Source of the DNA: an uncultured Pirellulaceae bacterium
GTDB taxonomy: Bacteria; Planctomycetota; Planctomycetia; Pirellulales; Pirellulaceae
Assembly: GCA_938036435.1 (NCBI GenBank)
Contig: CALHPU010000004.1
Coordinates: 1-40,068 of the forward strand
Direction of reading: 5' to 3'
DNA length: 40,068 nt
Part shown: positions 5,386-12,523 of the stretch, piece by piece
How the letters are laid out: each line of letters starts with the position of its first letter
Position numbering within the stretch: the first letter of the stretch is position 1
Program-made: the position numbers and the translations under genes
Notes under the pieces: model-generated
Database searches by the model: none
The model's input: only the letters and a program-made list of their open reading frames with translations
Told to the model about the DNA's origin: nothing

Positions 5386-6387
5386 TCAGTCGCTTGTCAT
5401 TGCATATAGCGATTCTTTAAGCCTAAGCATCCCCTCCGCATTTCCAACTCGCGGAGAGTAACCAAAATCACGTTTGGCACGCGATATATCGAAGTAATGA
5501 TTCTTGGCCAACTGAGAGGCCAGAAAACGCGTCATGCGCGGTTCGGAATCTTTGTTCATCAATTCGTGAATACTCTCTAGGGCGTAGCCCAATCGATACG
5601 CCCAGCGAAAGGAAATCGATTGCCGGACTCTCGACACCCCGGCAAGTTGAAGGATTTCATTGATCCACTCCCAGCAATTCACTGGATCGTCCTGCGATAT
5701 GAAATAAGCTTGGCCGCACAGCGGCGAATTCTCTTCCAGCGCCTCGGCTGCCTGTATGTGTGCTTCGGCGGCGTTGTCCACGTAGATCGTGTCAATCAAG
5801 TTCGCCCCGTCGCCTACACGACGTAACTGTTTCTTTTTTGCCCGATCAATCAAACGCGGAACCAGATGCCGGTCCCCCGGCCCCCAAATCAAGTGAGGAC
5901 GCAAGGCGCAGGTCAGCAAATCGAACTTGTCATTGGCATGTAAGACATTCTGCTCGGCCAGAGCTTTCGAATGAGGATAATGACACAACCACCGCTTGGG
6001 ATAAGGAGCGGATTCATCAACATGCGTCTGGTGTTGGCCGTTGAATGTGACAGACGGGCTGCTGGTGTATACCAACCGCCGGACGCTGGTTTGGACGCAA
6101 GCATCTACAACATTGCGCGTCCCAACTGTGTTGGTTGTGTAGTACCGTTTCCAAGGGCCCCAAATTCCGGAAATGGCTGCGGTGTGAAAAACTATATCTT
6201 GTCCCGTGCAGGCGGATAGCACACTGTCGAAGTCCCGCACATCGCCATGGGCCATCTCAACGTTTAAGCCCGCCAGTCCTTCGTCTCGGCGACGGGTCAT
6301 TGCGGTAACTTCGTAGTTCTGTTTGAGCAGATGCTTAACTAGGCATGACCCCAGAAATCCGTTCGCTCCTGTCACCAGTGCTTTCAC
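5386..6387 (-). CDS. OleD/NSDHL-like NAD(P)-dependent 3-beta-HSD family reductase
   Basis: A 333-residue extended short-chain dehydrogenase. It has the NAD(P) motif TGANGFLG at residues 6-13 and the catalytic YPHSK (Tyr137, Lys141) with upstream SSPS. The stretch SSPSVTFNG...DESAPYP...HYPHSKALAEQ resembles the 3-beta-hydroxysteroid dehydrogenase branch that includes OleD (2-alkyl-3-oxoalkanoate reductase of long-chain olefin synthesis) and sterol-decarboxylating NSDHL. No oleA, oleB or oleC is nearby, so olefin synthesis cannot be claimed. The arginine-rich segment after Gly-Asp (MTRRRDEG) suggests a possible NADPH preference. The ATG at 6387 sits right at the start of the Rossmann fold, as usual. 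The gene stands alone. Confidence 0.85.
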   Translation of the reverse strand: MKALVTGANGFLGSCLVKHLLKQNYEVTAMTRRRDEGLAGLNVEMAHGDVRDFDSVLSACTGQDIVFHTAAISGIWGPWKRYYTTNTVGTRNVVDACVQTSVRRLVYTSSPSVTFNGQHQTHVDESAPYPKRWLCHYPHSKALAEQNVLHANDKFDLLTCALRPHLIWGPGDRHLVPRLIDRAKKKQLRRVGDGANLIDTIYVDNAAEAHIQAAEALEENSPLCGQAYFISQDDPVNCWEWINEILQLAGVSRVRQSISFRWAYRLGYALESIHELMNKDSEPRMTRFLASQLAKNHYFDISRAKRDFGYSPRVGNAEGMLRLKESLYAMTSD

Positions 6388-10202: not shown

Positions 10203-10238
10203 AAAAAAGGCGTTCCGAAATTTTCGGAACGCCTTTTG
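10203..10238 (-). terminator. Rho-independent terminator of the thioredoxin gene
   Basis: A 13-bp stem AAAAGGCGTTCCG/CGGAACGCCTTTT with a six-base loop lies 40-75 bp after the thioredoxin stop. Read on the minus strand it is followed by T residues. It is nearly symmetrical, so it may also stop plus-strand transcription from the secreted-protein gene that ends at 9946; nothing else is recognised in the 9947-10202 gap. Confidence 0.85.
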
Positions 10239-10277: not shown

Positions 10278-10589
10278 CTAGACCGCCAGCAGTTCCTGAA
10301 GCTGAGCTTTTGGAAGGGCTCCAACTTTGCGATTGATAACTTCGCCACCTTGGAAGACCAAGATTGTTGGTACGGCAGAGACGCCGTATTTCATTGCCAA
10401 TTCCATGTTCTCGGACACATTGCACTTACCGATTTTGGCACTACTGCCCATTTCGTCGGAAAGTTCGTCAATGACCGGACTCAGTTCACGGCAAGGCGGT
10501 CAGCCATCTGCCCAGAAGTCAACGAGAACAGGCGTTTCTGCTCCTAGGACTTCCGCTTCGAAGTTGTCTTCGTCAAATTCTGCTGCCAC
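10278..10589 (-). CDS. trxA: Thioredoxin with selenocysteine (TGA) at the first active-site position
   Basis: Seen: GTG at 10587-10589, preceded by GGAG at 7 bases, opens a frame to TAG at 10278 with one TGA at 10500-10502 (codon 30). Read through, the 103-residue product is a full thioredoxin: VLVDFWADG-U-PPCREL, with buried Asp24, active-site U30-P-P-C33, the cis-Pro74 loop (SAVPTILVF), the FQGGEV turn and C-terminal helix. Against canonical WCGPC, the site is GUPPC, with Sec exactly at the position of the attacking Cys. Family knowledge: thioredoxins reduce protein disulfides with electrons from thioredoxin reductase; Sec at this position is chemically sensible. A further Cys at 56. Own ribosome binding site, own terminator, no restart codon after the TGA, and no other damage argue against a pseudogene. 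A Cys-to-stop mutation or read error remains possible. Confidence 0.85.
10465..10494 (-). promoter_or_regulatory. Candidate bacterial SECIS hairpin of the thioredoxin gene
   Basis: On the minus strand, bases 6 to 35 after the TGA can fold into an imperfect stem: TTG/CGA (outer), then C-G, then GTG/CAT (with a G-T wobble), then ACT/GGT at the top, with one mismatch and single-base bulges. The apical loop is GAGTCC, starts 18 bases after the TGA and begins with G. This fits the loop distance and loop-start rule of the bacterial SECIS model as I recall it. Alternative foldings exist and the stem is weaker than the one in the 7492-8865 gene. Confidence 0.5.
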
Positions 10590-11044
10590 GTGATTTCTCC
10601 ATGAGGGCAAAGTAATACGAGAGAGGTGTGGAACCGCGAGTTAAGGACTCAAGATGAACGAGTTTCTCCCATTGACCGATGCGGGTTCCAGTCCATTCTA
10701 TTTTCGACATTCTATCCCCAGTAGAATCAGGTCAACCAGAAAGAAGAGGTCTTTTGGCGGCAAAAAGTTGATTTTGCAACATTTCTTTGGCCCGCACAGC
10801 AACTTAAACCGGCATAAACATTCGGAATCTGGTACTGGACAATGATGCTGGACCATTGTCTCAGCCCGATTACGAATTTGATCGCAACATCATTTTCAAA
10901 TGAAAATATTCGCGTGAGGCAGGTTTGCAACTTTTCAACCTGCCAGGGCGATAGATCTGACAGGTTAAAAAACCTGCCCCACTAACTTAACTGATGCACA
11001 ACGCCATCGCCGAAGATCTCCATATTGGCTAAACCGACGTTGGG
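10590..11044. other. Intergenic stretch between thioredoxin and gltD
   Basis: About 455 bp between two minus-strand genes. It contains the inverted repeats listed below near the gltD end and presumably the thioredoxin promoter near 10600-10700. No coding frame here is credible. Confidence 0.4.
10918..10976. repeat. Two related hairpins downstream of gltD
   Basis: Two inverted repeats share the core CAGGTT/AACCTG. The first is GGCAGGTT (10918-10925) with AACCTGCC (10937-10944), 8 bp and an 11-base loop. The second is CAGGTT (10961-10966) with AACCTG (10971-10976) and an AAAA loop. They lie 70-130 bp past the gltD stop and could end gltBD transcription or be copies of a dispersed intergenic repeat. 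The shared core suggests the two came from one element. Confidence 0.5.
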
Positions 11045-11058
11045 CTAAACCGACGTTG
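11027..11058. repeat. 16-bp tandem duplication across the gltD stop codon
   Basis: Two exact adjacent copies of GGCTAAACCGACGTTG, at 11027-11042 and 11043-11058. The second contains the gltD stop codon (TAG on the minus strand, 11045-11047), so the duplication has only lengthened the 3' untranslated part and left the protein end unchanged. Confidence 0.9.
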
Positions 11059-12523
11059 CAACCGGTGATTCGAGATAGGCGTTGCAGGCCTCCGCGGCGC
11101 CGCGTCCTTCGCCAATGGCCCACACGACCAGACTTTGGCCTCGGCGGCAATCACCGGCAGCGAAGACACCTGGCACACTGGTCAAATAGTCGCTCTCGTC
11201 GGCCACCATGTTCGAGCGTCCATCAATCTCGATCCCAAACGCTTCAGAGATCGGAGCTTCTGGTCCCAAGAAGCCAAGTGCCAAGAAAATCAGATCCGCT
11301 TCGATGATCTTTTCGGTTCCGGCGACGTGAGAAAATGGAGCGACGCCCGGACGAGGCTTCGACCAATCGACCTGCATCGTTTTCAAGCCTTTCAAATTCC
11401 AATCCTTATCGGCGATGAATTCGACTGTTTCGACGGCAAACTTGCGAGGGTCTTGGCCGAATTTTGCTTTGGCTTCTGCATGACCATAGTCGGTGCGGAA
11501 AACGACTGGCCACTGAGGCCATGGATTTGAATCGGACCGCTCATCGGGTGGGCGATCGACAATTTCTAAATTCACAACGCTTTGACAACCTTGGCGAAGG
11601 GCCGTTCCAATACAGTCGGTTCCCGTATCTCCACCACCAATGACGACGACTTTCTTGCCTTTGGCGTCGATTGGTTCATTGGATTTCGATAGAAGGTACT
11701 GCGTCGAACCGTGAAGGTACTCCATCGCAAAATGAATACCGTCCATCGATCGTCCAGGTATTTTCAGATCGCGTGGTTGTGTTGCACCAACGCATAGAAT
11801 GACTGCATCGAAATCTGACTTCAATTGATCTGCGGTTACATCAACACCGACGTTGACGCCCGTCTTGAAATCGATGCCTTCTTCGGCAAGCAAATCCAAG
11901 CGCCGCTGCACGACATTTTTGTCCAGCTTCATGTTTGGAATGCCATACATCAGCAATCCACCGATGCGATCGTGTCGTTCGAATACGGTTACCTTATGCC
12001 CGGCTTGGTTCAGTTGGTCGGCCGCAGCCAATCCGGCAGGGCCAGAACCGACAATGGCGACAGTTTTGCCAGAGCGTTTGTTAACTTCGCGAGGCACGAT
12101 CCAGCCATTATCAAAGCCACGATCAACGATCGAGCGTTCGATGTTTTTGATGGTTACCGCCGGTTCGTTGATTCCCAGAACGCATGAACCTTCACAAGGA
12201 GCCGGGCAAACACGGCCAGTAAACTCAGGGAAATTGTTGGTGTGGTGCAGACGGTCCAGCGCCTCCTTCCATTTACCCTGATAAACCAAGTGATTCCATT
12301 CAGGAATCAGGTTGTTGATCGGGCAGCCAGCAGCCGAACGACCAATTAACTCTCCTGTATGACAAAATGGAACTCCACAGTCCATGCACCGAGCACCTTG
12401 CTTCTGTAGCGGCTCGTCAGTCAATTCGACCAAAAACTCTTTCCAGTCGCCAATGCGTTCTTGTGGATCGCGCTTACCTTCGTTCTCGCGATCGAACTCC
12501 ATAAATCCAGTTGGCTTACCCAT
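11045..12523 (-). CDS. gltD: Glutamate synthase [NADPH] small (beta) subunit
   Basis: A 492-residue FAD/NAD(P)H and iron-sulfur protein that passes electrons from NAD(P)H to the large subunit for making two glutamates from glutamine and 2-oxoglutarate. The N-terminal 4Fe-4S region shows [14 protein letters not shown] and [18 protein letters not shown] binding: [16 protein letters not shown](P) binding: [13 protein letters not shown]. The C-terminal FAD motif is [28 protein letters not shown]. Length is typical. It starts 77 bp after the gltB stop on the same strand, so gltB-gltD is an operon in the usual order. A 16-bp tandem duplication covers its stop codon. Confidence 0.97.

What the first reader, a model, noticed from the sequence alone, without database searches (positions are those of the whole stretch)
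10278..10589. Thioredoxin with TGA in place of the first active-site cysteine: probable selenocysteine thioredoxin (GUPPC)
The minus-strand frame from GTG 10589 to TAG 10278 encodes a complete thioredoxin broken by exactly one codon, TGA at 10500-10502. It falls on the residue that is Cys32 in E. coli thioredoxin: F-W-A-D-G-U-P-P-C-R aligned with F-W-A-P-W-C-G-P-C-R. Upstream (buried Asp24) and downstream (Cys33, cis-Pro74, glycine turn, last helix) features are intact for 73 further codons, there is no restart codon with a ribosome binding site, and a strong terminator follows. A stem-loop with a G-first apical loop starts 18 bases after the TGA. Standard gene callers would miss this gene or split it. 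The residue before (Trp to Gly) and after (Gly to Pro) the Sec are also changed, suggesting a retuned active site rather than a random nonsense mutation.
Basis: partly seen in the sequence, partly recalled or inferred. Interest (0 to 1): 0.95.

Follow-up and report, generated by a model that had tools for sequence, protein, structure and literature searches.

The report
Selenocysteine thioredoxin in a planctomycete
A small redox protein (thioredoxin) in a Pirellulaceae bacterium very probably uses the rare amino acid selenocysteine, coded by what is normally a stop codon, in its active site; close relatives do the same or use ordinary cysteine there, so it is a real selenoprotein gene of an already known kind.

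Summary
Window 10278-10589 (minus) is a 103-residue thioredoxin interrupted only by TGA at 10500-10502, on the first active-site cysteine (GUPPC). The same TGA is at this codon in 15 of the 28 genomes held of the genus; 3 have TGC, 1 is cut by a contig end, 9 showed no such orthologue. The genus encodes selenocysteine machinery: tRNA-Sec in 24 of 28 (own genome included), SelA in 22, SelB wing domain in 23. In the own genome (89.75% complete) SelD is present but SelA and SelB were not found. Codons just after the TGA are synonymously frozen across UGA lineages (74% against 41-45% elsewhere), and 11 of 15 carry the hairpin GACUG-GGUC-CAGUC. The window's own hairpin is weaker and not significant alone; no covariation supports it. 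Sec-containing thioredoxin (UxxC) is already a known bacterial selenoprotein family, so this is a new member of it, with Sec and Cys forms exchanged within one genus. The same genus, and other planctomycetes, carry a TlpA-like UGA family (WU[PG]PC) whose hairpin also has a GGUC loop. No protein or selenium data exist here.

The parts
10278..10589 (-). Sec-thioredoxin coding sequence, GTG start to TAG stop, 103 residues with TGA read as selenocysteine
   Evidence: family matches; relatives
10500..10502 (-). in-frame TGA, predicted selenocysteine codon (residue 30, motif G-U-P-P-C)
   Evidence: same codon TGA in 15 and TGC in 3 of 28 genus genomes
10473..10486 (-). AACTGAGTCCGGTC: place of the predicted bacterial SECIS hairpin (ACUG/CGGU, loop AGUC), beginning 13 nt after the TGA; an alternative fold with loop GUCCGG overlaps it
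   Evidence: weak in this sequence alone
10597..10600 (-). Shine-Dalgarno-like GGAG; GGAG within 20 nt before the start in 15 of 15 UGA forms
10209..10233 (-). terminator-like stem after the gene (GGCGTTCCGAAAATTTCGGAACGCC, then T run)
   Evidence: consensus scan lists the repeat on the + strand only
11045..12523 (-). upstream neighbour gltD, glutamate synthase small subunit; also upstream in G001, G005 and, before the Cys form, G013

Best explanation
The gene encodes a thioredoxin, probably cytosolic, whose attacking active-site cysteine is replaced by selenocysteine (G-U-P-P-C). Translation starts at GTG 10589; at the UGA (10500-10502) the ribosome would insert selenocysteine from tRNA-Sec, delivered by SelB bound to a short stem-loop just downstream, instead of stopping. 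The selenol would attack substrate disulfides, form a mixed selenenyl sulfide and then an internal Se-S bond with Cys33, and be reset by a thioredoxin reductase. Shown by sequence: the frame, the fold, TGA/TGC exchange among relatives, Sec machinery in the genus, constraint on codons after the TGA. Inferred: Sec insertion itself, SelB binding, location, redox chemistry, the reductase and the substrates.
For: TGA at the same codon in 15 of 28 genus genomes, TGC in 3, cut off in 1, no such orthologue in 9. tRNA-Sec in 24 of 28 genomes and 15 of the 15 with the TGA; SelA over cut-off in 22 of 28 and 12 of the 15; SelB wing domain in 23 of 28 and 14 of the 15; SelD in the own genome. Synonymous identity at codons +5 to +10: 53 of 72 comparable pairs (74%) among six representatives, against 107/238, 54/125, 82/199 and 68/160 (41-45%) in other parts of the gene. 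Hairpin GACUG-GGUC-CAGUC, loop 18 nt after the TGA, in 11 of 15 UGA genes and 0 of 4 Cys genes, within the published bSECIS rules for loop, stem and spacing (PMC13188914, passages). dN/dS after the TGA 0.31, 0.14 and 0.11 in the three closest pairs. AlphaFold2 model (Cys written for Sec) pLDDT 94.5; Foldseek's best PDB matches are thioredoxins, TM up to 0.96. TGA ends 4 of 19 larger window ORFs, one of them (5386-6387) matching its family model nearly to the end, so it still serves as a stop. A second UGA gene of the UxxC kind is in the own genome (L177).
Against: SelA and SelB were not found in the own genome. In the window's own sequence the hairpin is weak: 4 pairs with one G-U; synonymous shuffles do as well in 44% of trials and the local folding energy ranks at 0.38. 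The fourth published rule (energy at most -7.5 kcal/mol) is not met by this hairpin: -6.2 for the 30-nt stretch in five tested relatives, -5.2 in the window; the window's 45-nt fold reaches -8.0 but pairs the UGA itself instead. The helix has 0 of 5 pairs with changes on both sides, so no covariation. L023 loses the loop U (AGCC), L026 has only 3 pairs; one Cys gene (L030) also folds well there (rank 0.035). No Rfam match over a gathering score. No expression, protein or selenium data.
Confidence: 0.93

Rival explanations
1. Pseudogene: a nonsense mutation in a redundant thioredoxin, backed up by the ordinary WCGPC copy.
For: The own genome has an intact WCGPC thioredoxin on contig C11; SelA and SelB were not found in the own assembly.
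Against: The same TGA sits at the same catalytic codon in 15 of 28 genomes, in relatives down to 54% protein identity; protein-level selection continues after the TGA; synonymous sites just after the TGA are frozen.
Confidence: 0.02
2. The TGA is read, but as Cys, Trp or another amino acid by near-cognate or reassigned decoding, not as selenocysteine.
For: TGA differs by one base from TGC and TGG; SelA/SelB absent from the own assembly.
Against: TGA ends 4 of 19 larger window ORFs; tRNA-Sec with anticodon TCA is present; all 15 genomes with the UGA form have tRNA-Sec and 14 the SelB wing domain.
Confidence: 0.02
3. Selenocysteine insertion works in the relatives but the own species has lost selA and selB, so here the gene now gives a truncated product (recent loss).
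For: Neither selA nor selB found in the own assembly; the EpmA-like gene that borders selA in G001 is followed by other genes in the own genome.
Against: Assembly 89.75% complete; contig C70 starts about 150 bases beyond the gene that lies upstream of selB in G001, so that place is unassembled, although in G005 the same gene is not on the selAB contig; tRNA-Sec, SelD and a second UGA gene are kept; dN/dS after the TGA is low.
Confidence: 0.03

Closest known systems
Selenocysteine-containing bacterial thioredoxin (Trx, PF00085, UxxC; listed as characterized in PMC13188914, which cites Kim et al. 2015)
   Same: Thioredoxin family, Sec at the first position of UxxC, predicted SECIS inside the coding region after the UGA.
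   Different: Host is a Pirellulaceae planctomycete; the passages seen of PMC1794560 name a thioredoxin in Geobacter, Anaeromyxobacter, Carboxydothermus and Treponema. Motif here GUPPC (13 of 15) or SUGPC (2 of 15); I did not see the flanking residues of the published Sec-thioredoxins, so whether the motif is new is untested.
Ordinary thioredoxin TrxA (WCGPC), TIGR01068
   Same: Same fold and family score; Asp24, second Cys, cis-Pro position and last helix kept.
   Different: Sec for Cys; Gly for Trp and Pro for Gly beside it.
Other Trx-fold selenoproteins of bacteria (UGC TlpA, ResA-like WAxxUGC NF041054, redoxin PF08534 UxxC)
   Same: Sec in the redox motif of a Trx fold.
   Different: TlpA/ResA or redoxin type, not the small thioredoxin family.

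Membership tests
Sec-containing thioredoxin (PF00085, UxxC) | thioredoxin family match over curated cut-off | tested here: met
   (Cys written for Sec); structure
Sec-containing thioredoxin (PF00085, UxxC) | in-frame UGA aligned with a redox-active Cys of homologues | tested here: met
   UGA in 15, Cys in 3 of 28 genus genomes and in ordinary thioredoxins
Sec-containing thioredoxin (PF00085, UxxC) | bacterial SECIS hairpin (spacing 16-37 nt, G in first two loop positions, stem of 4 or more, energy at most -7.5) | tested here: inconclusive
   first three rules met in 11 of 15 and marginally in the window; energy rule not met by the hairpin; no covariation
Sec-containing thioredoxin (PF00085, UxxC) | host encodes tRNA-Sec, SelA, SelB, SelD | tested here: inconclusive
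   tRNA-Sec and SelD in own genome; SelA and SelB only in relatives
Sec-containing thioredoxin (PF00085, UxxC) | selenium in the purified protein and thioredoxin activity | not testable with these tools
   needs protein

The most novel reading that the evidence does not exclude
Within one Pirellulaceae genus a single thioredoxin subfamily (G-[U/C]-P-P-C, S-U-G-P-C) has changed between Sec and Cys at least twice, probably three times, while the hosts of both forms kept Sec machinery; and its UGA genes share with an unrelated TlpA-like UGA family one SelB-readable loop (GGUC) set at two different distances. The genus would be a ready natural series for why Sec is kept or given up.
Probability: 0.55. 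Interest if true: 0.6.

Novelty: new member of a known kind. Interest (0 to 1): 0.45.

Why it matters
A gene caller that stops at TGA would lose or split this thioredoxin. It places Sec-thioredoxins in Pirellulaceae; none of the listings and passages I saw reports one, but the candidate table of the one planctomycete paper (PMC4807772, S9) could not be opened. The value for a specialist is the comparison: thioredoxins about 81-82% identical, with Sec (G001, G005) and with Cys (G013, same gltD neighbour), in sister lineages that keep selA, selB and tRNA-Sec, make the question of what selenium adds to thioredoxin directly testable. The kind itself is known.

Tried and rejected
Pseudogene and general UGA reassignment were tested and found unlikely. 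Covariation as proof of the SECIS failed: 0 of 5 pairs change on both sides. A synonymous shuffle of the window's hairpin gave no significance (0.44; energy rank 0.38); the 5-pair hairpin of five tested relatives gave 0.07-0.08 and energy ranks of 0.01-0.06 (which took 13 of the 19 sequences then in hand: 9 UGA, 4 Cys; near copies left out). Rfam gave 6 matches, none over its gathering score. The SelB model in the own genome hit only other GTPase-like frames (best 146.7 bits, cut-off 242.25), the SelA model only a 28.9-bit stretch of a 415-residue frame. The search for selA-selB by neighbourhood was half informative: C32 carries the EpmA-like gene without selA after it; C70 starts near where selB would begin. 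Neighbourhood as a clue to function: gltD is upstream in own, G001, G005 and G013, but gave no match in the fetched flanks of G008 or of the other relatives searched, so no link is drawn. The GUPPC flank as Sec-specific tuning was rejected because the Cys forms have it too.

Row choices: the synonymous test used six representatives (own, G014, G016, G024, G025, G015) of 15 UGA genes; the other nine are their close relatives. The tree used 35 rows with the Sec/Cys column masked; G011, whose contig begins after the codon, is not in it. The 9 genomes without orthologue: in G004, G009, G010, G020, G026 and G027 I read a WCGPC best hit; in G003, G021 and G023 the best hits are weak and were not read (whose match list is cut). 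The TlpA-like hairpin count used 37 distinct sites that also hold R[ST]LV after the UGA; sites without it are not counted. Of the 44 pattern sites, 30 were read.

Full report
What is in the sequence. On the minus strand a GTG at 10589, preceded by GGAG (10597-10600), opens a frame that runs to TAG at 10278 with one interruption, TGA at 10500-10502. Read through, it gives a 103-residue thioredoxin that, with Cys written for Sec, passes the curated cut-offs of Pfam PF00085 and NCBIfam TIGR01068. The TGA stands on the first cysteine of the CxxC motif of solved thioredoxins. An AlphaFold2 model from a 19-sequence alignment of relatives (mean pLDDT 94.5, pTM 0.87) matches solved thioredoxins with TM-scores up to 0.96. 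A terminator-like stem lies at 10209-10233.

Relatives. A search of 117 genomes, own included, with the read-through protein found the same TGA elsewhere in the genus. For the 28 genus genomes held, reading the fetched loci gives: TGA at the codon in 15 (13 GUPPC; 2 SUGPC, G015 and G025), TGC in 3 (G008, G012, G013, all GCPPC), codon cut off by a contig end in 1 (G011), and no orthologue of this type in 9. G025 also has a GCPPC copy. The closest relatives with a name are filed as uncultured Pirellulaceae MAGs. GGAG lies within 20 nt before the start in 15 of 15 UGA forms and in 0 of 4 Cys forms.

Machinery. In the own genome tRNA-Sec scores 70.3 bits (cut-off 47) and is also called by ARAGORN with anticodon TCA; SelD scores 269 bits (cut-off 125) within a 743-residue frame whose first half I read, without a search, as an NADH-dehydrogenase-like fusion. 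SelD alone could also serve tRNA selenouridine (recalled). SelA and SelB were not found there. In the genus SelA is over the cut-off in 22 of 28, tRNA-Sec in 24 of 28, the SelB wing domain in 23 of 28. Of the 15 genomes with the UGA thioredoxin, 15 have tRNA-Sec, 14 the SelB wing and 12 SelA. In G001 and G005 selA and selB lie side by side. In G001 the pair sits between an EpmA-like gene and a further gene of about 390 residues. In the own genome contig C70 begins about 150 bases beyond that further gene, on the side where selB would follow, while the EpmA-like gene on C32 is followed by other genes; in G005 the further gene is not on the selAB contig, so the arrangement is not fixed. The own assembly is 89.75% complete. 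One missing locus would explain both absences, but this is not shown.

Is the region after the TGA a SECIS? Among six representatives, codons +5 to +10 after the TGA keep the same synonymous codon in 53 of 72 comparable pairs (74%), against 41-45% in other parts of the gene; codons +1 to +4 give 29 of 43, and a second peak lies at the start codon. In 11 of 15 UGA genes and none of the 4 Cys genes the hairpin GACUG-GGUC-CAGUC is present, its loop 18 nt after the TGA. It meets three of the four published rules for bacterial SECIS (loop of 3-9 nt with a stem of 4-16 pairs, G in the first two loop positions, spacing 16-37 nt) but not the fourth, an energy of at most -7.5 kcal/mol: five tested relatives reach -6.2 and the window -5.2 over 30 nt (PMC13188914, passages). 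SUGPC and GUPPC lineages share the hairpin though their active-site codons differ. The own clade has ACUG/CGGU with loop AGUC (AGCC in G001), or an alternative stem with loop GUCCGG; alone it is no better than synonymous shuffles. No pair of the helix is compensatory. In the 4 Cys genes the longest unbroken run of these pairs is 2 or 3, but it is also 3 in the UGA gene of G014, and one Cys gene (G012) folds well in another form. I regard the SECIS as likely from the frozen synonymous sites and the relatives, not from the window alone.

Selection. After the TGA, dN/dS (Nei-Gojobori, my script) is 0.31 (own vs G005, few differences), 0.14 (own vs G001) and 0.11 (G005 vs G001). TGA ends 4 of 19 larger ORFs picked from the window. 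Pseudogene and general reassignment are therefore unlikely.

History. In a tree of 35 thioredoxins with the Sec/Cys column masked, the G[U/C]PPC and SUGPC proteins form one group apart from the WCGPC proteins (86/93), with Cys forms at three places inside it: G008/G013 near the own Sec clade, the G025 copy, and G012 beside nine Sec forms. Several forks are open, the place of the G025 copy is weak (82/44, long branch). A SelA tree, 20 genomes and without the own one, groups G001/G005 with G008/G011/G013 (98/98). G013 keeps gltD upstream like G000, G001 and G005, so there it is the same locus. G008, G012 and G013 keep SelA, SelB wing and tRNA-Sec. The direction of change is not settled.

A second UGA family. 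A DNA pattern for D-F-[W/Y/F/C/L]-x-x-x-TGA-[P/G/A/R]-P-C found 44 sites in 19 of 396 order genomes, with 1 site for the backward control pattern, and matched 58 of 244 phylum genomes of at least 85% completeness with no control site. Of the 44, 30 were read: 24 are TlpA/ResA-like with DFWG-x-WU[P/G]PC or close to it, 5 are the thioredoxin of this report (two more of the 44 are too, as L033 and L039), 1 (G414) is chance. A genus search with one TlpA-like protein gave 91 matches in 25 of 28 genomes at E up to 1e-20: 71 with one TGA inside, 18 with no stop, 2 with two stops. The own genome has one, with FUPPC and a lipoprotein-like start by my reading (L177). Of 37 distinct sites with R[ST]LV after the UGA, 34 were scored with a 6-8 pair hairpin with loop GGUC and 2 with GGAC, each 31 nt after the TGA; the last, the own copy, also shows ACGGGC-GGUC-GCUCGU but the script listed an equal competitor first. 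The same loop in two different genes at two distances supports the hairpin of the thioredoxin.

What is known. Sec-containing thioredoxin with UxxC is an established bacterial selenoprotein family: listed as characterized in a 2026 review (PMC13188914, passages, citing Kim et al. 2015, not held), with 11 thioredoxins in the Sargasso Sea set (PMC1088965, passages), Trx-like families in the GOS data (PMC2398784, passages) and 7 in a 2006 survey (PMC1794560, passages). PMC4807772 (passages) describes selenoproteins in two other planctomycetes, naming formate dehydrogenase and formylmethanofuran dehydrogenase in the text; thioredoxin occurs there only in a reference title, and its candidate table was not opened. 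PMC1242214 was seen in passages. The searches listed no paper on a planctomycete Sec-thioredoxin, and the strings GUPPC and WUPPC only in mite papers; one search listed 20 of 45 papers, and the library is open-access only.

Verdict. The finding is real and its interpretation well supported: a selenocysteine thioredoxin. It is a new member of a known kind, made interesting by the Sec/Cys exchange inside one genus and by the selenium-rich setting. The first score of 0.95 was too high for novelty.

Noticed in passing
L127-L132, L134, L135, L137, L140, L141, L143-L151, L153-L168, L178, L179, L183-L201 in part (e.g. L148:1399-1851 +): TlpA/ResA-like family with WU[PG]PC, TGA at the first active-site position, six pattern sites in one genome (G004); the two segments scanned are below every NCBIfam cut-off; hairpin with loop GGUC coded by HERSLV 31 nt after the TGA in 34 of 37 sites; also in other planctomycete families.
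   Followed up: partly
L177 (G000:C140:32925-35302), TGA at offset 1108 on +: Second predicted selenoprotein of the window's own genome: short TlpA-like protein with FUPPC, lipoprotein-like start.
   Followed up: partly
L202, L203, L204, L205: Further UGA genes in other planctomycete families with GUGPC, GUPPC or TUPPC motifs and without the HERSLV hairpin; not classified.
   Followed up: no
L125:9021-9127 (G001): An element of about 107 bases upstream of selB matches about 40 other places listed in G001 and a few in G005; contig breaks may follow such repeats.
   Followed up: no
G013 and G005: These have Sec machinery but no TlpA-like match at E up to 1e-20; in G013 the thioredoxin is the Cys form, so what its Sec machinery serves is open.
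   Followed up: no
L018: SelD lies at the end of a 743-residue frame, apparently fused to an NADH-dehydrogenase-like half (my reading).
   Followed up: no
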